Assembly (NCBI GenBank): GCA_000697665.1 | Contig: KL197718.1 | Location: 999,099 to 1,063,098 of the forward strand | Direction: 5' to 3' | From: Jaapia argillacea MUCL 33604 | Lineage: Eukaryota; Basidiomycota; Agaricomycetes; Jaapiales; Jaapiaceae | DNA: 64,000 nucleotides | Part shown: piece by piece, positions 16,803 through 55,912 of the stretch | Numbering within the stretch: the first letter of the stretch is position 1 | Layout of the letters: every line of letters starts with the position of its first letter | The notes under the pieces: model-generated | The model's database searches: none | What the model saw: the letters and a program-made list of their open reading frames with translations, nothing else | What the model was told of the DNA's origin: nothing | Made by a program: the position numbers and the translations under genes

Positions 16803-16838
16803 CCTCGTCCCGATATGTCTCTGAATAACCAGAACCCT

Positions 16839-22345: not shown

Positions 22346-22372
22346 AGTTGTACACCGGCCATCTAGTCAGGA

Positions 22373-26884: not shown

Positions 26885-27052
26885 CTTGACTTCAGGAAGA
26901 TCGGGGTTCGGCATTAGTTCTCGACGGGAAACAGCCTCGATGTAGTCTTTGAGATGATTTGCGTGATTGTCTCTGGATGAAACTTATTGGTCGTTTCTGA
27001 GTGACCTTATGCTCGGTATAAACTATAACATCGATGACTCACGGGTAGCCAT

Positions 27053-27395
27053 TTTGAAACCTAGACAACCTGGGTTAAAGCGACACGGGATTACTAGACG
27101 GACGACAGTCTTGAAGGAGTAATATTTGATTGATGATAGGTAACTTCTTGGTGGTGATGATGGGTTCGATATGGAGCTGCTTGCGGATAATGTTCAAAAG
27201 TTATACTTGCCTCAATGACTTGGATAGCGTCGTACTTACTGCTACTTAGTGTCAGCGCAAGTGAACTTAGTGAAGATAGCTGATCAGCACGTTGGAAGTG
27301 TGACCGAAGAATGCATGAACTGTCACGCGTGACATTGGACAAACATTCACCGCCAGACTCTCCTCACCTTTCCATCCTCAACGTTCTCAACTCGT
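27053..27395. promoter_or_regulatory. divergent region between F-box copy C and the CxxC gene
   Basis: Holds the 5' flank of both genes. Part of it (27090-27250) matches 21950-22085 upstream of copy B, so the tandem unit extends this far. Both copies keep GAGGCAAGTATAACTT on the minus strand, which looks like a GC-type splice donor of an upstream exon (KYDAIQVIE at 27213 upward). Confidence 0.4.
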
Positions 27396-29113
27396 ATGAA
27401 AACCTCCGCCCTCATCAACCCCAACCCCAACCCCAAAGATGCACCCTCCCCAATCCACAGCACGTCCACCACAAGCGCCACCGTCTTCACCGCCGCTCCC
27501 CACCCATGTTCACGATGCAAAGTCTCCACTTCTTCACCCTACGCCATGTGCGATCCTTGTAGAATAAAGAACAGGGCAGAACAGCAGAAGTATAAAGATA
27601 GGAAGAAGGAGTTTAACCACGTCAAGAACGCTACTGTCACTACCGCTACCGCCCCGTCATCCTCGTCCAAATCACTCCCACTTTCCTCGCTGAATCCACT
27701 GCCTCTTACCTCCTCGAACCCCGTGCCTCTCAACCCTGCCATCCACCCCTGCTCGAAATGCAAGACACCCACCTCCACCGATTTCAAGTTGTGTGACGCG
27801 TGTAGGAAGAAAGGAAGAGAAGATTCGAGGAGGTTTCATGAGAGGAGACGGTTAAGGTTGGCTGCGGGGTTGGATAGGGTGGGAGATGATATTGGTGTTA
27901 AGAGGAAAGCGGGGGAGGAACTTGATAATAAGAAACGGAAGCTCGCTAGGAGCACTACTGACTCAAACATCGTGCGTCCTTCCCCTTTATCACTAAGAAC
28001 CTCCTTTTAACAATCACGTACACTTGATCATAGACATCCCCACGTACCACCCCCTCATTCACTGCCCTTACAAACTTCACTTCACCCGTCGACTCCGACT
28101 CATCAGAAGACGAACCACCCACGCCCCCAACACGTTCTAACGAACCACAGGAATACCAATTCGCCACCGAACTTTACACAGCATTAAACGCTCTACACAA
28201 ATCATATCTTAAATCATATCTTCATTACCTCAAGACTCTCTCCTCTCTCCCGAATGGGGCCTCCAACTCAAACCCGACGCCACCACCAACACCACTAAAC
28301 TTCACTGGCTCATTCTCAATAATCAAAGACCCTTCAATAGACGACGAAGCTAGAGTGGAGATGACGAGTAAGGAGTTGAGGAAGAGGGGGTTAGGTCATG
28401 TGTACGTTCCTTCCCTCGTTTTTGCTTGGTTCTCTTCTCTTTTTTTGGATGTGCGCGGGGGCAGGAGCGTGTGTCGTGGTTGATTGGATGCACGTGATCC
28501 TGGTTGACTGTATGCGCGTAGTCCTTCGACGAAACGCGCTTAGTTGCTCAACTATGCGGGGATTTCGTCAACTATATGCGCATATCGCGCACCTTCTTTT
28601 CCCCCCATCCATCTCCATCTCCTCCCTTCCTTCCTATCCCATACACAATACCTAACCAAACCCAACAGACCCCTCCCCTCCCACTTCCGCTCCCAACCCC
28701 AACTCACAAAGGGTTACACCAGGATGTTCGCTTGTAGATGTCTCGTTCCTGCTGAACAGGTCCACATGGACCCGGGAGTCGAGGAGAAATTGAAGTCGAC
28801 GACGGATATCGATGGAGAGCCGACGAAAGGCGATCTCCCAAAGCCGACGAAAGGAAACCCTCCACAGCCGACGAAAGGCGACCCTCCACAACCGACGAAC
28901 CATACCCCTCCGCCGCTCACCACCAACCTAACAAATCGGATATGTGGAGGGACGGTTAGCATCCGCGCCGAGGTTGATACTTCACACTCTTTGAATTCGG
29001 GAGTTCCGCATTGCGACGATTCGGAAGAGGGAGTGGTGAGAAGTGGGGTATTGATCGAAGGGCAGAAGGTTGTTGTTGAGATTCGACATCCCCAGCTCAA
29101 GATGTCAATGTAG
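27396..29113 (+). CDS. fungal CxxC/GQKV-family protein, founder copy
   Basis: Three exons (27396-27971, 28034-28401, 28669-29113) give 462 residues in consistent phase. Two paired-Cys motifs occur near residues 30-50 and 109-130 (PCSRCKVSTSSPYAMCDPCR and PCSKCKTPTSTDFKLCDACR), likely zinc-binding. A basic stretch (KRKAGEELDNKKRKLAR) could be a nuclear localisation signal. Exon 2 holds EYQFATELYTALNALHKSYL, then FTGSFSIIKDPSIDDEARVE and SKELRKRG. Exon 3 holds FACRC, short PTKG-D/N-PPQ repeats, CGGTVSIRAEVDTSHSLNS and GQKVVVEIRHPQ. The genes at 52814-53938 and 54528-55912 share this order and the position of the introns, so this is a family. I do not recognise it; a nuclear role is a guess from the basic stretch. 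Confidence 0.7.
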
Positions 29114-30103
29114 TTGTGACGAAAGCATTGTGTGGGTGGTTGGGGGTGGATGGGTGGATGGATTGTTTGCGTCGATGGAAGGATATGTGAAAGAGATGAC
29201 TGAACATACTGGGTTGGTTACTCTACGAAACGGATTGTGGAGGAGCGATCGAGTCTAGGGTGGAGGGACGGTCACATCTAGAGTGGAGCTTGATACCTCG
29301 CCCTCGTTCGTCTCATACCTATTCATACCTCGAGTTTGGGAACTTCATACCCATGGGGGAGGGGCTTAGGGTTATCTTGGGGGCAGAAGGTTGTCATTTG
29401 GGTTCGACAATCCGTTGGTGGGGAGGTGTATTGAGGGGGGGGGGGCATATTGGAGAGGAAGTTGATGGGATGGGTTTTTTGTCGTTTGTGCCGACGAAAG
29501 GACAACTCTATAAAGCCGACGAAAGACACGCTCAGGACCGGATTCGTCACTAACTGGGTATCGTCCTACCCCTCCAAACTGTGGAGAAGCAAATCGCCTC
29601 TAGAGCTGAGCTTGTTACCTCCCATTCGTTTGAAATTCACATCTTCCAATGTCTGAGACTTTCACATGTTTCGAGGTCGCGAGCTTCATACCCTTCTGGA
29701 AAGTATGTCGGGAGAAGGTGGTGTTCTCTTGGGCAGAAGGTTATTGTTAGGGTTCGGTGTCCGTTGGTGGGGAGGTGTTGGGGGATATTGGAGAGGAGTG
29801 GACGGAAGCGTTTGAGAGGGGGGTTGGGGGTGGTTTGTACCCGCGGTGATGGCCTCTGGAGCTGACGGACGATACCTCAAGACCGGATTCATCGCCGCTC
29901 CTTGCTGGACGAGGAGTGATGATCGTTCTAGCTGAACTTGATGCTTCGCACTCTTTGCGTTCGAAGGCTTTGTGCACGAGTTTGGGAGCCTTCATGTTGT
30001 CAGGAGAAGGGAAAGAACGTAATTGGGTTCTCATTGTTGGGTAGAAGGATGTTGAAGTTTGATGGAGATGGAATTGGGACGAGGATTGGAGGTGGTTGAT
30101 ACC
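29114..30103 (+). repeat. decayed array of last-exon copies of the CxxC gene, part 1
   Basis: Fragments of the exon encoding CGGTVSIRAEVDTSHSLNS...GQKVVVEIRHP recur in order. The landmarks are a GTGGAGGGACGG- or GTGGAGAAGC-like start (about 29236, 29260, 29580, 29905), GAGCTTGATAC-like text, and GGCAGAAGGTTGT followed by GGTTCG (about 29385, 29730). Units are roughly 250-350 bp and none keeps a frame. G-rich runs (about 29436) and GGAGGTGGTT are frequent between units. Confidence 0.7.
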
Positions 30104-30758
30104 TAGTGTTGATGGCAACCCCTTTGGGGGGCTGCCAGTTGCCGGCAAGCCGGCAACTGCCACTTTTGCCATTTGGCAAGGGGGTGGCAGGAAAAAACCT
30201 TGAATCAAATGGAATAAAAATAATGGTGGTTCAAATGCCTAAAGCTACAGCATCCTTTGAGTCCGATCCTGTTAGGAAACCCTCATATTGGCTAGAAAGT
30301 TTGGGAATGAAACCGACAACCATTGGTACATTGCCTTTGTGTACGGGTGCCTTGGAAGAAATCCTTGATTTACCTCTCATCAGCCACTCACTGACCTTGG
30401 ACAGTTTACACTGCTTGATTTCTCTGTCAGATGTTAAAATACTCGAATGAAACGGAGCAACCAGTTCAATTGCAAATGATGGGTTGGCCAAGAGATATTC
30501 TCACAGTTAGGGATTTTCTGAGTGTGGGAATCTTGCCAAGGGTGAAACAGAGTGGATTGGTGTGGTCAAAGGCCTATCATCCCAGAATCTGCCAGGATTT
30601 GTGGAGGATGGAGCATCTAACCCCCAATTTGTCCCCTCAGATGTCGTTGCCTATGGTACCCTGCCACCCCCCTGCCAGCGCCCCCCTCCCTTGCCAGCCG
30701 GCATGCCAGCTGCCGGCAGCTGGCACGGCAGGGTGGCATGGCACTGCCAACAACACTA
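30104..30758. mobile_element. 655-bp non-autonomous hAT-type element
   Basis: Ends are TAGTGTTGATGGCA and, inverted, TAGTGTTGTTGGCA. The flanks TTGATACC (30096-30103) and TTGATACT (30759-30766) form an 8-bp target duplication with one difference, as hAT elements make. The subterminal DNA is packed with TGCCAGCTGCC/GGCAGCTGGCA-type inverted motifs. The interior (30190-30650) has a minus-strand frame (SKVSEWLMRGKSRIS) of unknown origin but no transposase. The first eight bases of the end match those of the 5.4-kb hAT at 37818. Confidence 0.8.
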
Positions 30759-31700
30759 TTGATACTCCTCTGGATCCCACGAACGTCAAACGACACTTTA
30801 GGACTGGACTCGTTGCCACTTCTGCACCCTCCGAATTCGAGTGCTACATACCCTGCGAGGTAGGTCGAGAGAAGGGGCAGCATGGGGTGGTACGCTCACT
30901 ATAGAGCGGAAGGTTCATGTTGTTGAGATTTGAGGTCATTTGAAGAACATAAAGTTGGTAGTGAGGTGTTGGGAGGTGTAGTCGGGCCTGGGGAGTTGGG
31001 GGTGATAGGAATGATTGAGGGAGGATTGGAGGTGGTTCATACCCATGGGGTGATAACCCTCCCGAGCCGACGAACGGCGTACCCTCGGGACCGGACTCAT
31101 CACCACTGCTCATCGACTTGCTGAAAGGAATATGGTGAGGAACGATCACTCTCCACCTGAGCATGGTATTTCCCATTCTTTGAATCCAAGTGCTCCATAC
31201 ACTGAGAAGTACGTCGGGAGAAGGGGTAGTCTGAGGTGGGGCGCTCGTTGTGGGGTAGGAGGTTGCTGTTGGGGCTCGATAACCTTAGATCGAGATATAG
31301 TTGGTGGGGAGGGGCTGACAGCAGCCCAAGAGGCCCAGGAGGGATTACGGAGGAGTTCGAGAGGAGAGGAGAGGAGAGGTCGTTTGCGCTGATAAAAGGA
31401 TGCCCTATAGGCCCAATGAAGGACACTGTCAGGACCAAACTCATCGTTACTGGTTATCGATGGTCACTTACCAAACCGATACTCCCCACCTCCACATTCC
31501 ACAACCTCAGACACGTCACATTCTACACGTTTGGAAGTTCAGGAAGGCAGGGGAGCACCGGAGGCGGTGTTTTCATTGTCAGGCTGAAGGTTGTTAGGGT
31601 CCAATTTTCTTTGATAGAAATGTATTCGGTCAGGAGGAGCTTGCCAGAGATGGGTTGGAGGTGTTGGGAGGTGGTTTGGACTGTTCCTGGTTGATTCCAT
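30759..31700 (+). repeat. decayed last-exon array, part 2
   Basis: The array resumes after the hAT insertion. ACCGGACTCATCACCACTGC (31087) and GTGAGGAACGATCACTCTCC (31133) match the consensus, and GGTAGGAGGTTGCTG (31253) corresponds to the GQKV codons. GGAGGTGGTTCATACCCATG (about 31029) recurs in other arrays. No intact coding frame remains. Confidence 0.65.
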
Positions 31701-32042
31701 GCTGCTTAGGCAGAAATGCTACCTGCTGCGATCTCCTCAACGATGTACATCCGTGTATGGGCGATATAATGTGGCTTCGCAAGGTCATATGGGCCACCAA
31801 GAGGAGGCAAGAGGCGATGCATATCACAACGTGACTGTGACACACTCCACCATCTTCGTCGCTGCACTCACCATCGTGAGCGATCCAGGTACGATCATAA
31901 GTCACATTCCATCGCAGTGATCATTTGCATCCCTGAGGCCCTCAGTCTCATCTTCATGTCCCCACCATAGCTATTGTTCACCCTTTTCGCCCACAAAACA
32001 GCAAATACTCCTGCTTGCGGCGTTCTGTCGATTCAGCTGATA
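31701..32042 (+). promoter_or_regulatory. conserved 5' flank of the plus-strand F-box genes
   Basis: About 300 bp upstream of the F-box start are shared with 35260-35469, 43730-44030 and 48250-48586 (for example CGCAGTGATCA-like text, GCGATCCAGGTACGAT, TCTGTCGATTCAG). It is either a retained promoter or part of the duplicated unit. No TATA box stands out. Confidence 0.5.
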
Positions 32043-33662
32043 ATGCCTTCTCGTGAGCCACAAATTCGTACTCTATGATTCTCAGATGTTCACTCAAATC
32101 GTGCTAACAGACATCTTCCCTCGTGAAGAGTCTTTGGCTTTGCTCCGCGAAGTTTCTCGTTCGAATACATTGTCTATCATCCGGGACATGGATCTAACCC
32201 AGGAGCAGCTCCGCACAGAAGAAGATATCATTACTCTTGAGGCTCAGATAGGCGAGCTCCGGGAGAGACTACAAACCCTCAATCAAGAATTAGCTGGAGC
32301 GTGCATGCGGAAGGGACTGGCCAGTTCATTTGCAGCTTCTCCCATTCGCAAGCTTCCTCCCGAGGTCCTTGGTAGGATCTTTACAGCAGCCAGGGTTGAT
32401 ACAATTACGCGCCGTACCGATGTGCTCGATCCATTTCTCCAAGTTTGCAGGCATTGGAGCCAGGTGGCCTTGAATCCAGCCATTTGGTCCACCATCCGTG
32501 TGGAATACTATAGCAGAGGTGAAGATCCTGCTGAGCTGGTCCCAGCTTTAGGTCACCTCCTTCAGCGATCGGGGAGGACGTGAACATATTCAGCCTCTTT
32601 TGTCCACACGTTCATCGACTTCGAGGTGTTGACCTTCGGAATATGCGACATTTGGATGGTATGGCCACCCTCCTCTACGATATGGCAAATGGTAGTCCGA
32701 TACTCGAGTCTCTCGCGGTGAGCGAGTGGGATGATGATTTAGACCTGTCGGAATCATTTCAGGATATTCAGTCCTTTATAGCCCCATGCCTTCAATCCCT
32801 ATCGCTGTGTTGAGCATGGTATCCCAGCTGGTTGCATTTCCCTTGGTCTCAGTTGACGCACCTCCGATTTGGAGGCAAAAGGGCCACAGATTACTTGGTG
32901 ATCCATTGCTTTGATGTCCTCCGACAGTGTGTCCAGCTCACTCACTGTTGGATTCACTGCGGGCACGTCCACGATCCACTTTTTTCGTCTGTATTTGCAG
33001 CCCCACGTGCTGACTGCCATCCACCATCTGTAAACCAAAATCCCATCATTCTCCCCAAGCTTCATTTCCTCTTGGTAACCTCCACACCCAACGAACATCT
33101 CCTCTTCCAAAAGCTCCGTGCTCCATGTCTCACAGAGCTGAAATATATTCCTCGTGGTGGACCTGAGACAATGAGAGGTTTCAAAGGCTGGATCATGTCG
33201 ACTTCGTTCCGTCTCAGAAAGCTTATTGTGGACCTTTGGAAGGGATGGATGGAGTTCCTGGATTTGCTTCCCACAGTTATCCACCTTCATATGAATATGG
33301 ATATTGATGTACGTCCTGAAGATCGAGCAGTTCTCAAAGCCCTCCAGCTATCCCAAGGTGGCCCTCATGGCTGTTACATGCCTTGGATAGAAACCCTTTC
33401 ATTTGTATTTCACAGCGTCTTCTGTGAAGTCGTGTCTCTTCAGGAGAAAGTGGATGTGGTGATTTCCCTCATCATTTCCTGATGTTCTCCGCTATTGACT
33501 GAACAGTCAACCTCTTCCACTCCAACAGATGTAATCTCGCCTTTGCGTTATACACACCTGAGCATACCCGATTCTTCAGGACTTCAGGAGTACATTGGAA
33601 CTCGTCTTGCTGATTGCCTGGCTGGGGACCTCAGAGTCCACACAGAGATCGTGAGTGCCTGA
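32043..33662 (+). pseudogene. F-box protein, tandem family, 32-kb copy (broken)
   Basis: The 10-nt exon ATGCCTTCTC (32043-32052), a 58-bp intron ending GTGCTAACAG, and an exon from 32111 give MPSHIFPREESLALLREVSR. A coiled coil (EEDIITLEAQIGELRERLQT) and F-box (IRKLPPEVLGRIFTAARVD) follow. After LGHLLQRS about 60 bp present in the 44-kb copy are missing and the frame is lost at 32583. TGA replaces CGA at about 32813 and again at 33479-33481. The tail (LQEYIGTRLADCLAGDLRVH) is recognisable to 33660. It is a pseudogene of the family intact at 44 and 48 kb. Confidence 0.8.
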
Positions 33663-33839
33663 ATGGACTTCAGACTGTTCAACATATGCTTTTCTTGGTT
33701 GTTGCTCTCTACTCATCCCCATCTATCGCCGTGGATATGTCTTCCATCCGCCGTCATGCCTCGCCCACAACATTTCTCTGTGCTTTTACTTACTAGGACG
33801 GAAATGCAGTACTATATAGTTTCACGATGCATTTTTTTT

Positions 33840-34080
33840 CGAGCGCCCGTGGTAGCAGTCCAAACGGACCCCCCAACCCCGAAGATGAAGGATATTGATA
33901 AAAAAGAAACGAACGTTGCTCGGAGCACTCCCGTTTCAAACGTCGTATGTCTTTTCCCTTCAATGTCTACCTTCCTTAATGTTCCTCGTTTTCGAGTGTA
34001 TAGGCATCCACATGTAATGCTCTCTCACTCCCATCCCAAACTTCACTTCACCCATCGACTCTTCGAGCGCTGAGCGAGGT
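33840..34080 (+). pseudogene. remnant of a CxxC-family gene (exon 1 end to exon 2 start)
   Basis: GATAAAAAAGAAACGAACGT, then GCTCGGAGCACTCCCGTTTC and CCAAACTTCACTTCACCC, match 27925-28090 of the founder gene across its first intron. It lies directly 3' of the F-box pseudogene, as another remnant lies 3' of the 44-kb F-box gene. Only about 200 bp survive here before the array starts. Confidence 0.6.
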
Positions 34081-35260
34081 TCGCACCCCGAAATGTTGGG
34101 AAAGGGGTGAGCACAGGTGGGAGGGTTTCGGTTTTGGGCAGAAGGTTGATGTTGAGGTTTGACATCCTTTGGGTGGGATATAGTGGGCGAATGAGTTGGA
34201 GGGTGTAAGGTGGATGAGTGGTCTGTGCCGAAGAACCGTACCACGCTCGTTACCAATCCACATCGACCCACTAAACCGGATTGTGGAGAAACGATTGCAT
34301 CAAGAGCCGAGCTTGATACATTGCGCTGTTTGGATTCGAGTGCTATGGATGTCGGGGGGAAGGGGCAGACTGAGGTGTTGTCTATTGGGTGGGAGGTTTG
34401 ACATAGTTCGGTGGGTTGACATCCTGTAATGGAGACGGAGTTGGGAGGAGTTTGGGAGGAGGATTGGAGGTGGTTCATACCACAGGTGATATCCCTCTGA
34501 ATTCGATGAATGACACCTCAGGACCATATTCATTGACGCTCGCTATCAACTTTCTGGAATGAGGAGCGAAAGTGCTACATCCGAATTCAAGTGCTCCATG
34601 CGTTGAGAAGTAGGTCGGGAGAAGGGATAGCCTGATATAGGGTGATCATTATTGCAGCTGAGGTTTGAGAAGCTTTGGGATGAGTTTGGGAGAAGCAATT
34701 GGCAGCGGTTCGTACAGGCGTGATAACCCTTGAGGACCAACGAACGATCTACCCTCAGGCTCGGACTTATCACCACTCGCTACTGAGTTACCGAAACGAA
34801 GAGCGATTATCGTCCCCAGCTGAACTTGATACTTCGAAGGTTGGAGGGCTTGCTGAAATGAATCTGGTGAGGAACGACATGCCGAGCTTGAGATGCCTTG
34901 GACTAGTTGATTCCGAGCGCTCCGTACCATGAGAAGTACGTCAGTAGAAAGGGCAGCCTGAGGTAGGGCGCTCATTATAGGACAAGAGGTTACTGCTGGG
35001 GTTCAATAACCTTTGGTAGAGGTGTAGTTGGCTGGGAGTGGTTGACGGGAATTTGAGAACCCCAGAAGGGATTGGGGAGAAGTTCAAGTGGGGGGTTTTG
35101 GTCATTTGTGTGGATGAAAGGACACCCTCCGAAAGACACCCTCAGTACCAGACTTGTCACCACTGGCCTTCGACTTACCAAACCGAATACATGGAGGAAC
35201 GGTCACTCTTTGGCCGAGTTTGAATACTCTCCACCTCCGCATACCTCAATCTCAGGCACG
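34081..35260 (+). repeat. decayed last-exon array, part 3
   Basis: Landmarks of the founder exon recur at about 34275 (GATTGTGGAGAAACG), 34555, 34800, 34865 and 35190 (ATGGAGGAACGGTCACTC), with CGAGCTTGATACATTGCG-like text after several of them and GGAGGTGGTTCATACC in between. Spacing is 250-350 bp. No frame is kept. Confidence 0.65.
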
Positions 35261-35469
35261 TCACACCCTACACACTTGGCAATACAGAGGGAGGTCACAA
35301 TCGCCAGTGATCCAGGTACAATTACAAGTCACTTTCCATCGCACTATTCAGTTACATTCCCAGCGCCCTCCGTTTCATCTTCGTGTCTCCACTGTGGCTA
35401 CTGCTCGCCCTTTACGCCCACAAAACAACAAACATTCCCTCCTTCGGCGCTCTGTCGATTTAGTTGATA

Positions 35470-37132
35470 ATGCCTTCTCGTGAGCCACCAATGCACATTT
35501 CACGAGCCTCGGATGTTTGCCTAAATCGTGCTAACAGACCATCTCCCTCACAAAGCGACTTTGGCATTGCTCTGCGAAGCTTCTCATTCGAATGTCATCC
35601 AGAACATAGATCCTCTCCAGGAGTGGCTTCGCACAGAAGAAGATATCATTACTCTTGAGGCTCAGATATGCGAGCTCCAGGAGAGACTACGAACACTCAA
35701 TCGAGACTTAGCTGGAGCGCGTATGCAGAAAGTGCTGGCCAATTCGCTCGCAGCATCTCCCATCCGCAAGCTCCCTCCTGAGGTCCTTGCTAGGATCTTT
35801 ACAGCGGCCTGGGTGGATACGATCAAACGCCATACCGACGTGCTCGATCCATTTCTCCAAGTCTGCTGGCATTGGAGACAGGTGGCTTTGAATCCAGCCA
35901 TTTGGTCCTCCATTCACATGGAATACTATGTCATTGACAAGGACCCTACCATGCTGGTGTCAGCCTTAGGTCACCTCCTCCAGCGATCTAATGATACCCG
36001 TTTGGTCGTCACCGTGGAGATCCCAATCCATTGGCATACATTCCGGAACGTCACCGTCTTCAGCGTCTTTTGCCCACATGTTCACCAGCTTGGAAGCGCT
36101 CTCCTTCGAAATATGCGACATTCAGATGATATGGCTGTCCTCCTCTGCTCTATGGCGAGTGGGAGTCCGAGACTGGAATCTCTCGCGCTGAGCCAGTGGG
36201 AGCATCAAGTAGACATGGTGGAATCACTTCAGGATATTCAATCCTTCGTAGCTCCACACCTTCGAACCCTTTCGCTGTATCAGGGATGGCATCCCAGCTG
36301 GCTGCCTTTCCCGTGGTCCCAGTTGACGCACCTCCAATTTGGAGACAACAGGGCCACATTTTACTCGGTGGACAGCTGCTTCAATGTGCTCCGGCAGTGT
36401 GTCCAGCTCACTCACTGTTGGATTTACTGCCGTTCCGTGAACATTCCATTGGTCGCCTTTGGGATAGCAGCCCCATATACAGACCCTCACCCGCCCTTCA
36501 TAAACAAAAATCCCATCATTCTCCCCAAGCTTCATTTCCTCTCGGTAACCCTCACACATGACGATCATCTGTTCTTTGAACGGCTTCATGCTCCATGTCT
36601 CATGGAACTGAAATACATTCCTATTGGTGGACCCGAGATGATGATGGGTTTCAAAAGCTGGATGATGTCGTCCTCGTGCCTTCTCAAAAAGCTTACCGTG
36701 GACCTCTGGAGGGAATGGATGGTGTTCCTGGATTTACTTCCTACTGTTGCTCACCTTCATTTCAACATGGATCTTACTGTACATCCTGAAGATCGAGCAG
36801 TCCTCGAAGCTCTCCACCTATCCCAAGGTGGCCCTAATGGATGTTACATGCCTCAGATTCAAACTCTTTCATTTGTCTTTCACAATACCCCATACCCAGG
36901 CCTGTCCCTTGAGGATAAAGTGGATGCGGCAATTTCCCTCATCATTTCCTGATGTTCTCTGCTGTTGACAGAACAGCCAACCTCTTCCACTTTAACGGCT
37001 TTGATCTTGCCTCTGCATTATGCCTATCTGAGCGTACCCAAATCTGCAAGACTTCAGGAGTACATCGAAGCTCGTCTCGCAGATTGCCTCACTGCGGGCC
37101 TCAAAGTGCATATAGAGATCGTGGATGCGTGA
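35470..37132 (+). pseudogene. F-box protein, 35-kb copy, one late nonsense codon
   Basis: Exon 1 (35470-35479) and exon 2 from 35538 give MPSHHLPHKATLALLCEASH. The coiled coil is at about residues 30-65, the F-box (IRKLPPEVLARIFTAAW) at about 75, then FLQVCWHWRQVALNPAIWSS and a long leucine-rich region with LTHCWIYCRSVN and LPKLHFLSVTLTHDDHLFF. The frame is open for 474 residues to TGA at 36950-36952, where the 44- and 48-kb copies have CGA. The same frame continues for about 60 codons (LQEYIEARLADCLTAGLKVH) to a stop at 37130. It may therefore encode a slightly shortened, possibly working protein. The same TGA occurs in the 32-kb copy. Confidence 0.75.
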
Positions 37133-37299
37133 ATGGACTTCAGACAGTCCTGCAGGTGCTTTTCTTGGTATTTCTTTCTACTCTCAACCATGTTAGATAT
37201 GGCTTTCACGCTCTGTTGTGCCTCGCTCATGAGGTTTCTCCCTTTTACTTACTAGGAATGAAATGTAGTTTTATGTAGTTTTACGATGCTAGGGCCTGT

Positions 37300-37809
37300 G
37301 GCAATAGTTTCAAACCGACCAGAGAAAGGCAACTGAGGAGGGCTTGAGGTGGTTCAAAAGGATACCCTATAGAGCTGAGGAATGACACATCCCTCGCCAG
37401 AACCATAATCGTCGTTGCTGCTTACTGATTTGACAATCGAATTTGTGGAGGAATGTTCAGCCTGGTGGTGAGGAGTGATCACTCTTTGGCTGAGCTTGAT
37501 ACGTGAGGCTGTCTGGATGTGAGCGCTTTATACCCTGAGAAGTATATCTGGAGAAGGGGTAGCATGAGGTAGGGCGCTCATTTAGGGCAGGGGGATGTTG
37601 TTGGGGTACGATATCCTAAGAGAAACTCAGGACTGGACCCGTCGCTGGGTATTGTCCTAACTTACCAAATTACAGAGAATTAATCGCGTCCAGTGCTTGA
37701 TACCTTGCATTCGTTTGAATTCGCATCGTGCATCTCAGACTTTCACCTATTTCGAGGTTGGGAGCTTCACTGGCCCGTGGAAACTATGTGGGGAAGGCCC
37801 AAGCGTTGG
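37300..37809 (+). repeat. decayed last-exon array, part 4 (left of the hAT)
   Basis: Units at about 37440, 37468 (GAGGAGTGATCACTCTTTGG) and 37680 carry the founder-exon landmarks. The array is cut at 37817 by the hAT insertion and continues at 43212. Confidence 0.65.
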
Positions 37810-37817
37810 GATTCGAC

Positions 37818-43211: not shown

Positions 43212-43780
43212 GATTCGACATCCCTTGATGAGATGGATTTGAATGGGAAGAGGACTTGTGTTTGAGGAGTTGTCTGAGGTGGTAGTAGGAACTTGGAAGC
43301 GTTTTTGTGAGGGGTTTGGAGGCACTTGGTTCGCGCTCGTACTAGGAGAGTGATAACCCTAGGAGCCGATGAACGATGTACCCTCAGGAACTGACTCATC
43401 ACCACTGAATATTGACTTTTGAAACAGAATATGAGGAGGAACGATCACACTTCGGCCAAATTTGAGTACTCTCCACCACCAGACTGGAGGCCTACTGGCA
43501 GTGCCAGCATACATACCTCAACCTTGGACACACCAGACCTATGCACCTGGAAATTCAGGATGGGAGGGGAGCAACCAGAGTCAGTGTTTTCATCGTTGGG
43601 CTAAAGGTTGTTAATGCCTGGAATTCTTCAGTGGCAATGTATTTTGGTCAGGGGGAGCCGAGCCTCCTGGAGATGGGTTGGAGGTGTCAGAGGTGTTGGG
43701 AGGCGGTTTACGTTGTTCTTTCCTGGAGATTTCCTTCTGAGACCTCCTCAATGATGTACTGTGTATAGACGATATATTGT
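43212..43780 (+). repeat. decayed last-exon array, part 5 (right of the hAT)
   Basis: ATCCCTTGATGAGATGGATT (43220) continues the target sequence. Landmarks follow at about 43370 (GATGAACGATGTACCCTCAG) and 43430 (ATGAGGAGGAACGATCACAC). The 3' part merges into the F-box upstream flank. Confidence 0.65.
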
Positions 43781-44030
43781 GGCCTTGGAAGGTGAAGTGA
43801 ACGTCTTGGGCTCTTCAATTTATGGGCCAGCGATGTATGTCACAAAGTGACCGTGACTCAATCTCCACCGCATCTTCGTTGGTTGCACTCAGCGCCGCAA
43901 GCGATCCAGGTAAGATCATAAGCCACCTTCCATCGCAGTGCTTATTTACATCTCTGAGGCCCTCAGTCTCGTCTGTTTCGCTCGCAAAACAGCAGGTGCT
44001 CCCGCTTGCATTCTGTTGATTCAGTTGACA

Positions 44031-45718
44031 ATGCCTTCTCGTGAGACACGAATCCGTACTCTACGATTATTCAGATGTTTACTCAAATCGTGCTAACAGA
44101 CATCTTCCCTCGTGAAGAGTCTTTGGCTTTGCTCTGCGAAGCTTCTCGTTCGAATACATCATCTATCATCTGGGACATGGATCTAGCCCACGAGCGGCTC
44201 CGCGCTGAAGAAGATATCATTACTCTTGAGGCTCAGATATGCAAGCTCTGGGAGAGACTACGAACCCTCAATCAACAATTAGCTGGAGCACGCATGCGGA
44301 AGGGACTGGCCAATTCATTTACAGCTTCTCCCATTCGCAAGCTCCCTCCCGAGGTCCTTGCTAGGATCTTTACAGCGGCCCAGGCAGATAAGATTATGCG
44401 TCGTGCCGATGTGCTCGATCCATTTCTTCAAGTCTGCTGGCATTGGAGACAGGTGGCTTTGAATCCGGTCATCTGGTCCACCATCTGTGTGGAATACAAT
44501 AGCAGTGGTGAGGACCCCGCCGAGCTGGTCCCAGCCTTAGGTCACCTCCTCCAGCGATCCAGCAATACCCGTTTGGACATCGCCGTCGCAGTGGAGATCC
44601 CACTCCATTGGCATACATTTGGGGACGTGAATGTCTTCAGCGTCTTTTCTCCACACGTTCATCGACTTGGAAATGTACTCCTTCGGAATATGCGACATTG
44701 TGATGATATGGCCGTCCTCCTCTGCGATATGGCAAATGGCAGTCCAAGACTTGAGACTCTCACGTTGTGCCAGTGGGATCATGAAGGAGACCTGGCAGAA
44801 TTGTTCCAGGATATTCAGTCCTTCGTAGCCCCACGCCTTCGATCCCTATCACTGCATCGAGGATGGAATCCACGCTGGTTGCCTTTCCCTTGGTCCCAGT
44901 TGACGCACCTCCGATTCGGAGACAATAACAGGGCCACGTATTACTCGGTGGTCCACTGCTTTGATGTACTCCGACAGTGTGTCCAGCTCACTCACTGTTG
45001 GATTCACTGTCGGACTGTGCGTGATCCACCTGTCACCTTTGGATTAGCAGCTCCACGTCCTGACCGCCGTCCGCCATCCATAAACCAAAATCGCATCATT
45101 CTACCCAAACTTTATTTCCTCTCGGTAACCTTGACACCCGATGATCACCTCTTCTTCCAAAGGCTCCATGCACCACGTCTTGCGGAGCCGAAATATATTC
45201 CTCATGGTGGACCCCAGACAATGAGAGGTTTCCAAAGCTGGGTCATGTCGACTTCGTGCCCTCCCACGAAGCTTATCGTGGACCTCCGGAAGGAGTGGAT
45301 GGAGTTCCTGGAATTGTTTCCCACAGTTGTCCACCTTCATTTCAACATGGATCTTGTTTTATATCCTGAAGATCGAGCAGTTCTTGAAGCTCTCCGGCTA
45401 TCCCGAGGTCGTCCTAATAGCTTTTACATGCCTCGGATGCAAACCCTTTCATTCGTATTTCGCTACAGTGACGGCTCGCATGACTTCGCATCTCTCGAGA
45501 CGAATGTGGATGCGGCGATTTCCCTCATCGTTTCCCGATGTTCTCCATTGTTGACTGAACAACCAACCTCTTCCCCTTCGACAGATGTAATCTCGCCTTT
45601 GCGTTATGCCCACCTGAGCATACCTAGTTGTGCAGGACTTCAGGAGTACATCGAAGCTCGTCTTGCAGATTGCCTGACTGCAGGCCTCAGAGTGCATATA
45701 GAAATCGTGCGTGCGTGA
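44031..45718 (+). CDS. F-box protein, tandem family, 44-kb copy (intact)
   Basis: Exon 1 is ten bases (44031-44040), followed by a 59-bp intron (GTGAGA...GCTAACAG) and exon 2, 44100-45718, giving 542 residues. An in-frame Met at 44075 would avoid the intron but would sit inside the sequence conserved as an intron in the relatives. The protein has MPSHIFPREESLALLCEASR, a coiled coil (residues 30-70), the F-box at about 80-125 (IRKLPPEVLARIFTAAQADK, then QVCWHWRQVALNPVIWS), and about 400 residues of irregular leucine-rich sequence ending RVHIEIVRA. F-box proteins carry substrates to SCF ubiquitin ligase through Skp1; the C-terminal part should bind the target, which is unknown. No lesion is seen. 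Confidence 0.85.
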
Positions 45719-45879
45719 ATGGACTTTGGACTGTCGCCTAGGTGCTTTTCTTGGGTATTGCTCTCTACTTCATCCCGTGGATATTTATTCCATCCTCCAT
45801 CGTGTCTCGCGCAAAAAGTTTCTCTGCTTTCACTTACTAGGAAGAAAATGTAGTACTATGTAGTTATACGATGTAGCGT

Positions 45880-47130
45880 GCTCAGAGCACCCGTGGCAGT
45901 AGTTTCAATCAACTTCCAAACCCTGAAGATGGTAGGACAGAAAGGCGATCGAGGATATCCATAAAAAAGTAACGAAAGCCGCCCGGAGCACTCCCGTTTC
46001 CAACATAGTATGTCTTTTCCCTTCAATCGCTACCCTCTTTGACGCTCCTCGTTTTGAAACATATGGGGATCCCCATGTAACACCCCCTCACTCACTTCCA
46101 TTCCAAACTTCACGTCACCCGTCGACTCTGACTCATCCTCAGACGAACCCCCAGCCCAAAACCACCCCCCAAGCCACAGGGATATCGATTCGCCACTGAC
46201 CTCCACGCGATACTCAACGATCGACACAACATATCTCAAATCTTACCTTCGTTACCCCAAGGATATCTTGAATACAGTCTCCAATCCAATCCAATCCAAC
46301 CCTCCCCAACCCAAAGTCGACGCCGCCGCCATCACCACCGCCAAACTTCGCAAGTTCATTTTCAATAATCAAGGACACTTCGATCAATGACAAGACTAGA
46401 GTTCGCAAGGTCAGACATGACTAGACCCCTCTCACACCTAAACATCTTTGTCCTTCTCCATTGCCCACGAGACGAGTGGTCCACTTGTGGTGGACCTCTC
46501 TTAAGCGTTTATGCTCCAAGATTGCGAGAATACGTTTTGTCTCACTCTTTGCTAACTTTCCTCGTCACCTACTATTCCCATTGTCTCTATCCTTCATGCT
46601 CTCCGTCCTTCTTTCTCGTAATTTCTGAACCCGCGTTTTGGATGCGTGGTTGAGGAGTATTTTGGGAGGTTGTATGGTGCAACTTGGGGGCGTGGTTTGG
46701 TCGGGCTATATGCGCAGACCTTGGTCGACTGTATGCGCGTTTCTCGACTGACTGCTGGCACGTGTCTTGGTTGGCTGTCCTCTACCTCTTTCCTTCCTCT
46801 CATCTCCTCCCTTCCCTACCCGATAGACAATACTAACCCAAACCACAGGACCCTCCCACTCTCGCATCAACTCAACACCAACCCATGAACGGGTATACGC
46901 AGACTTTCGGGTGTAAGTGCCTCGTCCAGGTGATGAGGTGAGGGTGGAGATGGAGGGGATTTGCGAGATGTTTAGGAGAAGCTGGGGAAGTCGACCATGG
47001 ATATCCCTGTAGAGACGACCAAAGGCCACCCTCCAGAACTGACGGGGGACAACTCGACAGACCCGAAGAAACCTGCCCACGGGATGTGTGCAGGGACGAT
47101 CACTATTCGCTCTGAGGTTGATTGTTAACA
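45880..47130 (+). pseudogene. decayed CxxC-family gene (exon 2, long intron, exon 3)
   Basis: Collinear with 27925-28990 of the founder. It has AAAGTAACGAAAGCCGCCCG, the CGTCGACTCTGACTCATCC region, GATATCGATTCGCCACTGAC (EYQ segment), TTCATTTTCAATAATCAAGG (SFSIIKD segment), the long intron with TATGCGCGTTTCTCGACTGA, and an exon-3 start (GGGTATACGCAGACTTTCGG) leading to ACGATCACTATTCGCTCTGA. Many frame disruptions are present and the 5' finger exon is missing. It lies 3' of the 44-kb F-box gene, in the same order as at 33.8 kb. Confidence 0.75.
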
Positions 47131-48210
47131 CTCTTTGAATTCGAGCGCTGAGCGAGGTCCTTATTGAGTTTCGACATCCTTTGGTTGGGATGTGGCGGGC
47201 AGAGGAGTTGGAGGGTGTAAGGTGAACGGGTGCCGACGAAACACGCCGCGCTCATCACCACTCCACATCGACCTACCACACCGGATTGTGGAGAAACAAT
47301 CGCGTCTAGAGTCGAACTTCATTCTTTGCGCTGTTTGCATACGCCCGGAGAAGGGGCAGATCGAGGTGTTGTCATTATTGGGTGGGAGGTGTTGGGAGGT
47401 TTATTTCGACGAAAGGTTATCCTAAGGATCCGACCTGGCGAGAGATGGTCCCACAGAGCCGATGGAAGACTTCCTTAGGGAGCCGACGAAACGTACCGGG
47501 TTTATCACCACTCGGTACGCCTTACGAAACCGGATTGTGAAGAAGCATCGCGTCTAGAGCCCTTTGAAACCTCGCATTCGCCAGAAGGTCATTGTTGGGG
47601 TCCGATATCCTTTGATGTAGACTGAGTTGGGCGGGAGGAGCGGTTGGGTATGAGTGGTTGGGGGGTGTTTGGGGTTTTTTGTGAGGAAGCGTTGGGCACC
47701 ACTTGAGAGGAGGGCTAGAGGTGACTCATGCCCCCGGGTTATAACCCCCTGGAGCCCACGAACGACGCACCCTTAGACTGGACTCGTCACCACTGGACAT
47801 CAACTTGCCGGAACGAATATTTGGAGGAGCCGTCACTCTCTGGCGGAGCTCGACACTTCGCACTGTTTGAATTTGAGGGCTTTGCATCCCACGAACGCGG
47901 GAGCGTTCGTACCCACCGAACTTGGGGCTTCGCGCCCTTCAAATTGAGGGGAGGGGGAGGTGGGGCTTTGGTTTTGGTTTTGGGGCATGAGGTTATTTTT
48001 GAGGTTCGACATCGTTTGGTTGGGATGAAGTTGAGGCGGAGGAGTTGGGAGATGGTGTTGGAGAGGAGGGCTTGGGGAGGTTTATGCCGAAGACAGCCCC
48101 CTCAGGACCAGACTCGTCGTTGCCGAGATTGACTTGACAAACCGAACATGTGGAGGAACGAAATGTATTCGGTTCAGAGAAACCAGGGGACGTAATTGGT
48201 TGGGTTGGAG
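47131..48210 (+). repeat. decayed last-exon array, part 6
   Basis: Landmarks at about 47285 (GATTGTGGAGAAACAATCGC), 47535, 47820 (GGAGGAGCCGTCACTCTCTG) and 48150 (CATGTGGAGGAACGAAATG), with GCATGAGGTTATTTTTGAGG at about 47985 for the GQKVVVE codons. Several units keep phrases of GACGAA(A/C)G(G/C), from the PTKGDPPQ repeats. Confidence 0.65.
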
Positions 48211-48586
48211 GTGTTGGGAGTCGGTTTGTGCTGTTCTCTTCTGATTGATTTCGTGCTGCTTTGGTGGCAATTTTGTCTGCTGCGACCTCCTCGATGATGT
48301 ACACCTACGAATTTTCACAAGTTTGGGAAGCTGAACGTCGCTCACCCAACTCAGCAGTTATCAATGGTGCATGTCACAACGTGACGGTGATACGGGGCTG
48401 CACGATCTTTCCCCCTGCACTCACAATCGCAAGCGATCTAGGTACGATTACAAGTCACTTTCCGTCGCAGTATTTGTTTACATCCCAGGCTCCTCCGTTT
48501 TGTCTTATTCGCGTCCCCACTGTAGCTGACCCTTTCCGCTCACAAAACCACCATCTTCCACTTTCGTTCTGTCGATTCAGTTCATA

Positions 48587-50258: not shown

Positions 50259-51039
50259 TTGGACCGTTCCACAGGTGCTTTTATCGGAATTACTCTCTAC
50301 TCCGCGTCGCAGTTGCCCTCGTCGACATGCCTTCCGTCCTCCGTCATGCCTGGCGCACGATGTTTCTATCTAGTTTGTATGACTAGGAAGTACACGTCAT
50401 GTGTAACTTAACGATCCATCGTGCTTCTGGCAGTTGTCTGAATATCTGAAGATTTGAATTCTGTTTGAGTCGAATATTAATGAGTCGATCTTGAGTGCGT
50501 CTAAGTCTGTTGGCAGTGCCGTGGATTGGCATCGCACTGGCTTGCTTGCATACATACGTCATACTTTCAACAAACTCCCTCTTCCGAACCTTACCCTTCA
50601 AATCGTCCCTACTCAAGGATTGATCAATGAAATAATATTCCTGAACCCTCGACGCTCTCGCCGCCCGGCAATCTTGCCACTTGATTCATCGAAGCAGTGA
50701 AACTTGGGAGTGCTGTGTCGCTGGTGACGATCATGATGTACATGTCACGACTGCTTCCTTGCTTCCTGTCGTCCACCATCGTATCTGCTACCCATCAAGG
50801 TAGGATCACGGGGATTATGTTCGAGTGGATCTCCCTGATCTCACTTTCATCACACAGACCTATCTAGCGCACGCGATCTATCGACCAGGCTGGAGCCATC
50901 GACTTGACGTCTTGTTGACGTCCCTTCACTCTCACTCGGCTTCGAGCGGGCCAACAACTTTGTGCTCATACGACGTCTTCCCGTGAGTGTCCACAACTCT
51001 GTACTCATCAGGACTCACCAGACGGCTCTTGCAGAGATT
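50259..51039. other. intergenic, no gene recognised
   Basis: Contains the 3' flank of the 48-kb gene and the 5' flank of the 51-kb gene. No CxxC remnant or last-exon array is present here, unlike the four preceding units. ACGTCTTCCCGTGAGTG at about 50973 corresponds to the conserved first exon plus donor, but without its ATG. Confidence 0.4.
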
Positions 51040-52683: not shown

Positions 52684-52813
52684 AAAAGTGAATTTATGTT
52701 TTATAAAGTGAATGGGTCGACGAAGAGGGAATTGTAAGTAAATCAAGGATGTGTCTGTCTCGTGAGGATCATCTCAACTCAATATCATACCATGCAAAGC
52801 ACCGGCCCCTTGG

Positions 52814-53938
52814 TCACGATTTCGTTGTATGACTAACCCTCACGACCACCTTCTGCCCCCAGATGTTCAGCGGATGACTGGAGTCGTGCTGAGAAGAGAT
52901 CGAGATTGTCCCGCCACAACGTCCTTTCCCCGATACAGATCCCGGAGTGTTGTGCCCTGGGGAAGTCTTGGCGCATCTGAACGTCTTCTCGTAGTATCCT
53001 GGTCTCGATTCAGGATTCTGAGAGTTCGAACTGCAAGGAAGGAACTAATCAGTGGTGATACTGAGGGTACTGGAGTCCGACGCACTCAACGGGAATGACC
53101 TTCAGCTCTTTTGACACCAACTCTACTCGCATCTTGTTGCCGATCTTGGGGTCACGCACGATAGAGTAAGTACCCTGAAAGTCAAGTGAGAGATCCGCCT
53201 CGGCTTCGCTTTCGCTTTCGTCGGCATACGTTCCGTCCGTTGAACAAGAATGGAGGAACAAGAATTTCGAAATCGTTTGGACCATCTTTTCGGGGGTTTG
53301 GTATTCCAGAGGTGCTGTCGAATCTGTTGTGGGTAATTGATAGGATGTATCCTAGTGGCGTAGCAGACGAGATCAAAAATATCAGTCTTGTGCCATGGAT
53401 TGACTCGGAGATATTAACAAAAGACACGCACATTAACACGAGAAGAGGGCTCCTCTTCGCCGATCTTCTCTCTGATCCTCGCTATCTTCCTGACCAAACC
53501 ACCCTCTACCTCGGTCTCCGCTTTCCATTTCTTAGTCGTTCGGACCCCTCCATCTTTATCTGACTTCTCTGTGGCCTTCGCCTCCTTTTCCTTGTTCATC
53601 GTCCACCTATCCAAGATATTGGGCTTCCTCTTTGGCGTCAAGTCCTTCTCCGAATCCTTCTTTATACATGTATCGCAGCGAGGTTGGTAGCCACCCTTGA
53701 TGGCAACTGCAGGCTTTCCTTCTCGTCTAATATCGAAGACTTCGGCACATCCACCGCACCTTTTGAGGATTGGAGTACGAATAGGCTTCTCCTTCGAGGT
53801 CTTGGTAGACGCAACGGGAGTAGACTTCAGGGCGGATGCGACTGAGAGGCGGGGACGCGATGGTCCGGCGGAAGTCGTGGTCTGTTTAGTGTTAGCAGAA
53901 GCCAGATAGTCACTCAGTAAACGAAATTTAGGAGCCAT
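52814..53938 (-). CDS. CxxC/GQKV-family protein, tandem member 1
   Basis: Exons 53938-53440, 53323-53071 and 53030-52814 join in phase to 322 residues. Residues 1-60 are Ser/Thr-rich and basic (PRLSVASALKSTPVASTKTS). The paired-Cys motif runs CGGCAEVFDIRREG to PRCDTCIKKD. A lysine-rich stretch (KRKPNILDRWTMNKEKEAKA) follows. Exon 2 carries LEYQTPEKMVQTISKFLFLH, an acidic ESESEAEAD run, FQGTYSIVRDPKIGNKMRVE and SKELKVIPVE. Exon 3 carries PGYYEKTFRC, RCGGTISISSQHDSSHPL and GQKVVVRVSH. The order equals that of the 27-kb gene. The last intron is only 40 bp but is placed as in the neighbour gene. Unrecognised family; possibly nuclear and zinc-binding. Confidence 0.7.
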
Positions 53939-54527
53939 AGGGAGGAGCGGTGGCTGGGAGGAAAATGTGGTGTTTGACGTGGACAGTGAAAACAGAAAGA
54001 AACTGCGACGCTATGGAAGATCGCAAACGCCACTCATGAATTACAATTATCTTTATCCTGGACATCGCTACGAGACATGCCTGTTCTCCATAACTACGAG
54101 ATTTCGGATTTACCACAAGCCTATGTACGCCCTAAGCGGTGGCAAGGGTCCAATATTCACAAACAAAAAATCGGAGCGAAAGCCCAGCAAAAGACTGCAT
54201 TCCCAATCCTCAGTCATCCCACTCGACCGTTATCCCATCCAAATCACTGATCATAGATCCATGTATCACGGTAAACCTTCTTACCTTCCATCCAGGCGAA
54301 GAATCAGAAGATGAGCGAAATTGTCGTGAGCGTCACGTTCACGTGCATTGTGACACCGACGCGGCGGGCGTGGACGAGGATCATCTGCCAATCGTTTTCT
54401 CTAGGATATCTACAAGCAAACTCCCTTTTGGAAAGCTCAGAACAGTAATTTCACCGTGAAACTAGATAATAGACTCACCACGAGTTTGAGTTAAACCCCG
54501 ATCGGCATTAACTTGTGAAACATTTCA
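53939..54527. other. intergenic between the two CxxC tandem members
   Basis: 5' flank of the 53-kb gene and 3' flank of the 55-kb gene. Plus-strand open frames here resemble nothing and are not conserved. Confidence 0.4.
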
Positions 54528-55912
54528 CTACGTGGCAGGATGCGAGATCCTTACAACAACCGTCTGTCCCCAGAACCCGAGTGGATGACTAGAATCATGT
54601 TGAGAAGAGATCGAGATTATCGCGTCACACTCTATACCCTTCGGGCTCCCAGATTTCGAACCCGACGCACGGTCTGCCAGGGGAGCATTGGAGCATTTGA
54701 AAGTCTTCTCAAAATATCCTGGCTTGGAGGCAGGGTTGAGAGATTTCGATCTGCAAGAGCAAGAACTTGAAATTCAGCTGCGGCTGGGGGAAGAACAACA
54801 GTAATCTGACGGACGCGATTGGAATGACCTTCAAGTCATTTGAAACCATCCAGACCCGCTCCTTGTTTCCCACTTTGGGCTCACTCACGATCGAGTAGGT
54901 CCCGGAAAAGCCGACTCGAGTAGTTTTACTAGCAAGATGTCGTTGTCCATCCGCAAGACAAGAATGCTCGAGGAGATAGTTCGAGGCATCTCGTAACAGT
55001 ATTTCGGACGTTTGATACTCGATAGGCGTTATGAAGTTTGAAATCGTTGGAGGGTGGGACGTCGACTAATAGTGTAAATAAGTACGTTGGTTGGGAGGAT
55101 ATGCCTGAGGAAGTGGTGCATACGTGCGATGAGGTCCCCTTGGGCGAAATATTTGCCCTCAGCTTGGCGATCTTCTTCGTCAACTCGCTCTCCGTCTCGC
55201 TGTCTGCCTTCCGTTTCTTGCTGATCCCCAGGTCAATGCTCGTTGCCTTCGCCATCTCGGCATTCTTACTCTGCCCCCTCTTCTTCCTATCACTCTCCTC
55301 TTTCGTTTTCTGCGTCTCTCTCGCCTTTTGGGCTTCCTTTGCCCTTTTGGCCTCCTTCGCCTTTGCTTTGGCCTTCTCCGCCTCCTTCATCTTCTCCCTC
55401 TTCTCCTTCTCCCGTTTCTCCTTCTCCAGCTTCTCTTTCTCCTCGCGAAACATTGCTATTTCAGTCGCATAGTCCAAGCCCTTGGGGATAAAGAGCATAT
55501 CACATGTATTAGACCCAATATCCCACACCGTATAGCACTCCATCTCCTCTCCATCATCATACTCATCCTCTACATCTTCGTCGAACACAATTTCGATACA
55601 TTCCTCACAGATCGGCTCGTTGAGATATGCATCCTGGTCCATTTCCAACCATCTCTTAGATTTGGGTATGGTGAGAAGGTTGAAGGGGTCGCCACAGCGG
55701 GCGCAGTATTGGAGAACTGGAGTGCGACGAGATTTCGTACTCGTAGAAGGTTTGGTGACGGCAGCCAGTCGGGTCCCAGCGACGCGGTCGGTAGCTCTTC
55801 CGGTCTGTGCAGTAGACGCGACGGGCATACGACCACGCGAAGGTTTTGAAACGGAGGATTTACCAGAATCGCCATTGGTGACAGTGTTCGAGGAGCGGGA
55901 ATTCAAAGCCAT
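54528..55912 (-). CDS. CxxC/GQKV-family protein, tandem member 2
   Basis: Exons 55912-55134 region to 55124, 55065-54800 and 54750-54528 give 425 residues in phase. The start is MALNSRSSNTV; an upstream in-frame Met lies at 55945. The paired-Cys motif runs CARCGDPFNLLTIPKSKRW to CEECIEIVFD, with acidic residues after it. A long charged helix (EKEKREKEKREKMKEAEKAK) of about 80 residues predicts a coiled coil or single alpha-helix and is larger than in the neighbours. Exon 2 has IEYQTSEILLRDASNYLLEH, FSGTYSIVSEPKVGNKERVW and NDLKVIPIA; exon 3 has PGYFEKTFKC, ISISSQHDSSHPLGFWGQTV and VVRISHPAT. The CGGT of the sister genes reads CDAI here. It is a tandem paralogue of the 53-kb gene; function unknown. 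Confidence 0.7.

What the first reader, a model, noticed from the sequence alone, without database searches (positions are those of the whole stretch)
27396..55912. An apparently undescribed fungal protein family: CxxC pair, EYQ segment, GTYSIV segment, GGT-GQKVVV C-terminus
The genes at 27.4, 52.8 and 54.5 kb look unrelated at first glance but share the same order. They have a paired CxxC motif (two in the 27-kb gene), a basic or charged linker, an intron, EYQ plus a helix, F-x-G-(T/S)-(Y/F)-S-I followed by DP or EP, then RV or RVE, a phase-2 intron, F-(R/K/A)-C, and ISI/VSI...SH(P/S)L...GQKVVV-x-(V/I)-x-H(P). Spliced lengths of 462, 322 and 425 residues are all exact multiples of three. Remnants lie at 33.8 and 45.9 kb. 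I know no named domain with this plan.
Basis: partly seen in the sequence, partly recalled or inferred. Interest (0 to 1): 0.75.

Follow-up and report, generated by a model that had tools for sequence, protein, structure and literature searches.

The report
Unnamed fungal zinc-finger gene family
Three genes in this fungal DNA, plus a fourth elsewhere in the same genome, encode one small protein family with paired-cysteine motifs in front and a shared back half that matches no named domain we could search; it is probably a nuclear zinc-binding protein, but nothing about its function has been tested.

Summary
The observation largely holds. Genes A (27.4-29.1 kb, +), B (53.9-52.8 kb, -) and C (55.9-54.5 kb, -) are homologous in exons 2 and 3, with the same two introns (phase 0, phase 2). 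A fourth full-length gene, D, on another contig has the same introns. Homology of the C-terminal half is far above shuffles. The N-terminal CxxC halves align within A/D and within B/C but not between the pairs. Only eight Cys/His columns are invariant in all four: CxxC...CxxC in front; C, C, H, H in the last exon. No Pfam family reaches its cut-off; NCBIfam and PDB sequences give only weak matches. Own-genome protein searches find only these four genes; DNA comparison adds damaged copies, all in this cluster. pN<pS in both pairs points to conserved coding. Best reading: a small, probably lineage-restricted nuclear protein family, zinc knuckles in front and a beta-rich, possibly zinc-stabilised domain behind, probably acting on DNA, RNA or chromatin (inferred from motif type only). 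Fungal proteomes could not be searched, so 'undescribed' is only partly tested.

The parts
27396..27971 (+). Gene A exon 1: two CxxC-x10-CxxCR motifs each followed by a basic stretch, then a KRKA...KKRK-type basic pair
28034..28401 (+). Gene A exon 2: EYQ, F-x-GSFSIIKDP, RVEMTSKEL; ends in phase 2
28402..28668 (+). Gene A intron 2 (267 bp) with degenerate ~24-bp repeat; the word at 28506-28518 recurs in intron 2 of gene D and in the 46-kb remnant
28669..29113 (+). Gene A exon 3: F-x-C-x-C, insert with 24-bp period, CGGTVSI, D-x-SH, GQKVVV-x-x-x-H, stop
53432..53938 (-). Gene B exon 1: one CxxC-x23-CxxC, lysine-rich linker
   Evidence: one search was one base off at the exon end
53086..53351 (-). 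Gene B exon 2 (EYQ, FQGTYSIVRDP, RVELVSKEL)
52814..53030 (-). Gene B exon 3 (FRC, CGGTISI, DSSH, GQKVVV, H)
55124..55912 (-). Gene C exon 1: one CxxC-x28-CxxC, acidic then long charged E/K-rich stretch
54815..55065 (-). Gene C exon 2
54528..54750 (-). Gene C exon 3; the donor before it is an unusual GTCCGT
45939..47143 (+). Damaged copy of gene A (end of exon 1, exon 2, intron 2, part of exon 3)
33889..34061 (+). Fragment similar to gene A at the exon 1/exon 2 border
29220..31614 (+). Seven segments similar to the 3' part of gene A exon 3, directly downstream of gene A
34027..35292 (+). Six further exon-3-like segments
37418..37733 (+). Three further exon-3-like segments
43402..43613 (+). One further exon-3-like segment
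47071..48161 (+). Six further exon-3-like segments

Best explanation
A small, probably lineage-restricted fungal protein family of four genes in this genome (A, B, C in the window; D on contig C4). Shown: similarity of exons 2-3 far above chance, conserved introns, pN below pS. Inferred: the front part binds zinc through four-cysteine knuckles next to basic residues and enters the nucleus through basic clusters, so that it contacts DNA or RNA; the back part (helix plus about five beta strands, with two invariant Cys and two invariant His) is a separate folded module, perhaps held by its own zinc, that binds a partner. Together it would act as a nuclear regulator or adaptor of transcription or chromatin. 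D, beside a housekeeping-type gene, is the likely settled copy; A, B and C lie in a fast-changing F-box gene cluster where pieces of A have been copied and damaged.
For: Exon 2 of A or D against B or C: 0/500 shuffles in 4 of 4 pairs; exon 3: 0/500 in 3 of 4 pairs and 3/500 in the fourth (A-C). All 8 introns are GT-AG (B intron 1 after a one-base correction); first intron phase 0, second phase 2 in all four genes. Fourth gene found by protein search and read by its own splice sites. pN < pS: A/D 0.40 vs 0.75 over 375 codons, B/C 0.36 vs 0.66 over 317 codons. The only invariant Cys/His columns in the four-way alignment are C,C,C,C in exon 1 and C,C,H,H in exon 3. A basic cluster before intron 1 in all four (sequence). 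AlphaFold2 on single exons: exon 3 three strands, mean pLDDT 61; exon 2 one helix and two strands, mean pLDDT 49.
Against: No tool result shows zinc binding, nuclear location, nucleic-acid binding or expression. Exon 1 of A/D and of B/C is not alignable above shuffles (34 to 218 of 500). The last 50 residues of exon 1, with the basic cluster, are not clearly above composition-matched shuffles between the two pairs (60, 650, 970 and 1975 of 2000), nor between A and D (1104 of 2000). Structure models are low confidence and cover single exons only; a Foldseek search of the exon-3 model gave no match at E <= 0.001 (best E 1.0). Gene C differs at otherwise shared residues and has an unusual donor site. 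dS is 3.9 (A/D) and 1.6 (B/C), so the ratios are only indicative.
Confidence: 0.5

Rival explanations
1. A gene family in an arms race or self-recognition setting: the zinc-finger gene and a neighbouring F-box gene are duplicated together as a unit, and the F-box protein targets or guards against the zinc-finger protein.
For: Both larger A-like remnants (33.9 and 45.9 kb) follow plus-strand F-box genes, and 32576-34062 aligns with 44623-46129 (79%) across the F-box end and the A-like start. Four F-box frames are open and under constraint (dN/dS 0.24-0.41 in 6 of 6 pairs), while the 46-kb A-like copy has 11 of 15 alignment gaps that are not multiples of three.
Against: The 3.1 and 4.0 kb on either side of gene D show no similarity to three window F-box proteins (best E 0.57). 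Intact A, B and C are not paired one-to-one with an F-box gene (my reading of the map). dN/dS below 1 shows no positive selection on average. The F-box genes may simply have carried a passenger.
Confidence: 0.15
2. The proteins derive from a mobile element (for example a transposon accessory protein with cysteine-cluster domains).
For: CxxC motifs, basic linkers and local copies of A; cysteine-cluster domains of fungal KDZ transposons are recalled, not tested.
Against: Own-genome protein searches list only A, B, C, D and chance-level single hits, and two DNA searches with pieces of gene A and of an exon-3 copy list places on this cluster only (2 and 4 places; the tool scores only the best candidates). 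No transposase domain in the Pfam scans. All 24 exon-3-like segments of the window lie on one strand within 20 kb, as expected from tandem duplication.
Confidence: 0.06
3. Some of the models are dead or never-expressed genes; only D and perhaps B are real.
For: Gene C differs at shared residues and has an unusual donor; gene A sits among its own damaged copies and has a repeat-expanded insert in exon 3.
Against: No internal stop in 4 of 4 spliced frames, pN < pS in both pairs, and shared splice phases.
Confidence: 0.2

Closest known systems
Double zinc ribbon and zinc-ribbon Pfam families (DZR PF12773, Zn_ribbon_15 PF17032, DZR_2 PF18912)
   Same: CxxC pairs of zinc-ribbon type; weak matches, mostly over the second motif of A and D (E 0.046 to 0.39)
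   Different: All scores are far below the curated cut-offs (for example 14.3 against 27.3 bits for DZR); most matches cover about 20 residues; nothing like exons 2-3; no match for B or C
Bacterial ribosomal protein S14 type Z (four-cysteine zinc finger)
   Same: C-x2-C...C-x2-C followed by basic residues (recalled); best PDB match of the full-length profile (E 1.5)
   Different: Not significant; no relation in the rest of the protein
Fungal DUF3716 (PF12511; 'fungal' is recalled)
   Same: Weak match to the second CxxC motif of gene D (E 0.59)
   Different: Below cut-off (10.5 against 22 bits) and only one of four members

Membership tests
Zinc-ribbon families of Pfam (DZR, DZR_2, Zn_ribbon_15) | Score above the family's curated cut-off | tested here: not met
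   11.8 to 14.3 bits against cut-offs of 27 to 28.9
Zinc-ribbon families of Pfam (DZR, DZR_2, Zn_ribbon_15) | Two CxxC pairs close enough to bind one zinc | tested here: met
   CxxC positions in A, B, C, D; shuffles reach the count in 0, 14, 42 and 0 of 20000. Zinc binding itself not tested
One shared family of A, B, C and D | Significant similarity of the C-terminal half in matched exons | tested here: met
One shared family of A, B, C and D | Same intron positions and phases | tested here: met
   phase 0 then phase 2 in 4 of 4
One shared family of A, B, C and D | Homologous N-terminal zinc region | tested here: inconclusive
   A/D and B/C each alignable within the pair, not between pairs
Mobile-element protein | Dispersed copies or a transposase domain | tested here: not met
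Nuclear nucleic-acid-binding protein | Zinc binding, nuclear location, nucleic-acid binding | not testable with these tools
   sequence motifs only

The most novel reading that the evidence does not exclude
The back half is a new beta-rich fold with its own C-C-H-H zinc site, joined to a front zinc knuckle in a fungal regulator family that controls itself through a conserved element in its second intron: the 13-base word at 28506-28518 was found four times in the 43.7-Mb genome, three of them in intron 2 of A, of D and of the A-like remnant.
Probability: 0.12. Interest if true: 0.6.

Novelty: new variant of a known kind. Interest (0 to 1): 0.36.

Why it matters
Fungal genomes hold many genes without any named domain. 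A family with a clear alignment, conserved introns, eight invariant Cys/His positions and a probably settled copy beside a housekeeping-type gene can be turned into a profile at once, used to find its reach across mushrooms, and tested for zinc and nucleic-acid binding. If the back half is a new zinc-held fold it would be a new domain; if not, it is one more ordinary lineage-restricted zinc protein.

Tried and rejected
Rejected: a GQKVVV-like pattern hit on contig C32, which on reading is an unrelated frame. Weak protein hits on C47, C23, C44 and C17 (E 0.21, 1.27, 1.87, 2.15) were taken as chance and not read. An internal repeat (exon-2 hairpin = exon-3 hairpin = insert of gene D) looked attractive by eye but is not supported: most of 24 comparisons are within shuffles, the best being 5/2000 and 30/2000 without correction for the number of tests. 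Homology of the basic cluster before intron 1 between A/D and B/C is not clearly above composition (best 60/2000). Fold search of the exon-3 model gave nothing; the exon-2 model (pLDDT 49) was not searched. Scans of IMG/VR and GTDB gave no relative. Five literature searches (20 of 57, 20 of 67, 14 of 14, 10 of 11 and 10 of 11 papers listed) showed no paper recognisable from title or start of abstract as describing this family; only passages of PMC5041008 were read, on clustered F-box and other large families in animals; all other papers were seen as listings only. The KDZ/cysteine-cluster idea is recalled, not tested. The fourth genome site of the intron word, on C51, lies between genes that look unrelated and is taken as chance.
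Full report
What was checked. The window is contig C10:999099-1063098 of a 43.7-Mb genome in 95 contigs. I read the three loci in all frames and spliced them by GT-AG sites that keep the frame. Gene A: 27396-27971, 28034-28401, 28669-29113 (+), 462 residues. Gene B: 53938-53432, 53351-53086, 53030-52814 (-), 329 residues. Gene C: 55912-55124, 55065-54815, 54750-54528 (-), 420 residues. In one search the first exon of B ended one base off and did not read through; the corrected coordinates were confirmed.

A fourth member. A search of the genome with B exons 2-3 returned six places: B and C (two each), A, and one on contig C4 (E 0.006). Reading that place shows a full gene, D: C4:1001878-1001225, 1001160-1000628, 1000253-999950 (-), 496 residues, both introns GT-AG, phases 0 and 2 as in A, B and C. 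D has two CxxC-x10-CxxC motifs like A. It lies beside open frames that read as an NADP-type glutamate dehydrogenase (named from the sequence by eye, no database call). Further protein searches with pieces of D, C, B exon 1 and A found only A, B, C and D, plus single weak hits on other contigs with E 0.21 or more. These searches use a seeded first look and did not list the known damaged copies, so a very distant or damaged fifth member could be missed. Two DNA searches of the genome, with the exon 1-2 border of A and with an exon-3-like segment, listed 2 and 4 places, all in this cluster.

Is it more than chance? Local-alignment scores against shuffles: A/D and B/C reach 0/500 in all three exons. 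Between the pairs, exon 2 reaches 0/500 in 4 of 4 comparisons; exon 3 reaches 0/500 in 3 of 4 and 3/500 for A-C; exon 1 reaches 132, 188, 218 and 34 of 500, that is, not significant. Four control comparisons of exon 2 with exon 3 reach 95 to 323 of 500. So the C-terminal half is one homologous region; the N-terminal zinc-type region is shared in kind and place only. CxxC counts in exon 1 are themselves non-random (0, 14, 42 and 0 of 20000 shuffles for A, B, C, D). Coding constraint: A/D pS 0.75, pN 0.40 over 375 codons; B/C pS 0.66, pN 0.36 over 317 codons; dS 3.9 and 1.6 are saturated or nearly so, so ratios are only indicative.

Anatomy. Front: CxxC-CxxC knuckle motif(s) followed by basic residues. 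Middle: charged, low-complexity linker with a KRKA-like basic cluster before intron 1 in all four genes, whose similarity between the pairs is not clearly better than composition gives (60 to 1975 of 2000). Exon 2: EYQ, a predicted helix, then two strands around F-x-G-(S/T)-(F/Y)-S-I and the following charged stretch (mean pLDDT 49). Exon 3: three strands around F-x-C, G-T-x-S-I and G-Q-x-V-V-V (mean pLDDT 61). In the four-way alignment exactly eight Cys/His columns are invariant: four Cys in exon 1 and Cys, Cys, His, His in exon 3. I take the latter as a possible second metal site; this is inference. D carries about 70 extra residues in exon 2 and A a repeat-expanded insert in exon 3.

Known families. 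In Pfam no match reaches its cut-off; the matches of gene C to TAF4 and Mitofilin (E 1.7e-4 and 0.0012, both below cut-off) fall on its E/K-rich stretch and I take them as composition. NCBIfam gives 15 weak matches, each in one of four members, the best with E 0.0067 to a bacterial protein. PDB sequences: none for B and for the exon-3 profile; for the full-length, exon-2 and zinc profiles the best E-values are 1.5 (S14 type Z), 0.39 (a viral polyprotein) and 2.1. Foldseek of the exon-3 model found nothing at E <= 0.001. IMG/VR and GTDB scans found no relative. No fungal collection is available here, so absence from fungal annotation is not tested. Five literature searches listed no paper recognisable as describing it.

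Surroundings. The window is rich in F-box genes: of 10 frames scanned, 3 score above the Pfam F-box-like cut-off and 2 more below it with E 5e-5 and 0.0033. The plus-strand F-box genes are tandem copies (64 to 86% DNA identity); four of their frames are under constraint (dN/dS 0.24 to 0.41 in 6 of 6 pairs). A-like DNA travels with them: 45.9 kb and 33.9 kb, with 11 of 15 alignment gaps in the 46-kb copy of exon 2 not multiples of three. In addition the 3' part of A's last exon is related to a field of further segments: an iterated nucleotide profile finds 24, including A's own, all on the plus strand between 28.9 and 48.2 kb, and none in the reversed window. They are damaged but not all closed: of 14 that are 120 bases or longer, A's own left out, 7 keep some open plus-strand frame, and by eye one (29553-29767) keeps the TSHS and GQKVIV parts in one frame without the CGG. 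In the 9-kb stretch around D only D's own exon is found, and no similarity to three window F-box proteins (best E 0.57).

A side finding in intron 2. Intron 2 of A (267 bp) and D (374 bp) are long compared with the other six introns (55 to 80 bp) and share sequence (alignment score 66 against 35.6 +- 6.3 for dinucleotide shuffles, 0/300). Their longest common word, 13 bases, is longer than any common word in the matching exons (10 to 12) and was found four times in the genome, and the same word read backwards not at all: intron 2 of A, of D, of the 46-kb remnant, and one place on C51 that looks unrelated. About one chance occurrence is expected in a genome of this size (my estimate). The word was picked after seeing the sequences, and other controls are weaker: sharing of 8-, 9-, 10- and 12-mers is reached in 12, 14, 7 and 2 of 500 shuffles; the window's two near-matches to the word are reached in 5 of 100 shuffles and the two in L010 in 18 of 200; D against the remnant is not significant (56/300). 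It is suggestive only.

Reading. A small family of probably nuclear, probably lineage-restricted zinc proteins. Family membership of A-D: confidence about 0.95. Nuclear nucleic-acid or chromatin role: about 0.5, from motif type only. The most novel reading not excluded is a new zinc-held beta fold with self-control through intron 2.

Noticed in passing
28402-28668 and L010 (C4:1000627-1000254, minus strand): Intron 2 of paralogues A and D shares a 13-base word and wider similarity although synonymous sites are saturated; the word was found four times in the whole genome, three of them in this intron or its damaged copy.
   Followed up: partly
28913-48161: A field of 24 plus-strand segments (one of them gene A's own) similar to the 3' part of gene A's last exon, roughly 300 bp apart in places; 7 of 14 longer ones keep some open frame.
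   Followed up: partly
31494-52683: Tandemly duplicated plus-strand F-box genes (64 to 86% DNA identity); four tested frames stay open and constrained while the A-like DNA beside them is damaged.
   Followed up: partly
6226-8234, 19542-21978, 25120-27107: A second set of related duplicated stretches on both strands (82 to 85% DNA identity), no Pfam match for the two frames scanned.
   Followed up: no
16785-20119 and 22366-25695: A 3.3-kb direct duplication at 84% identity.
   Followed up: no
L010 1931-3188: Open frames reading, by eye, as glutamate dehydrogenase beside gene D; a possible synteny anchor for finding orthologues.
   Followed up: no
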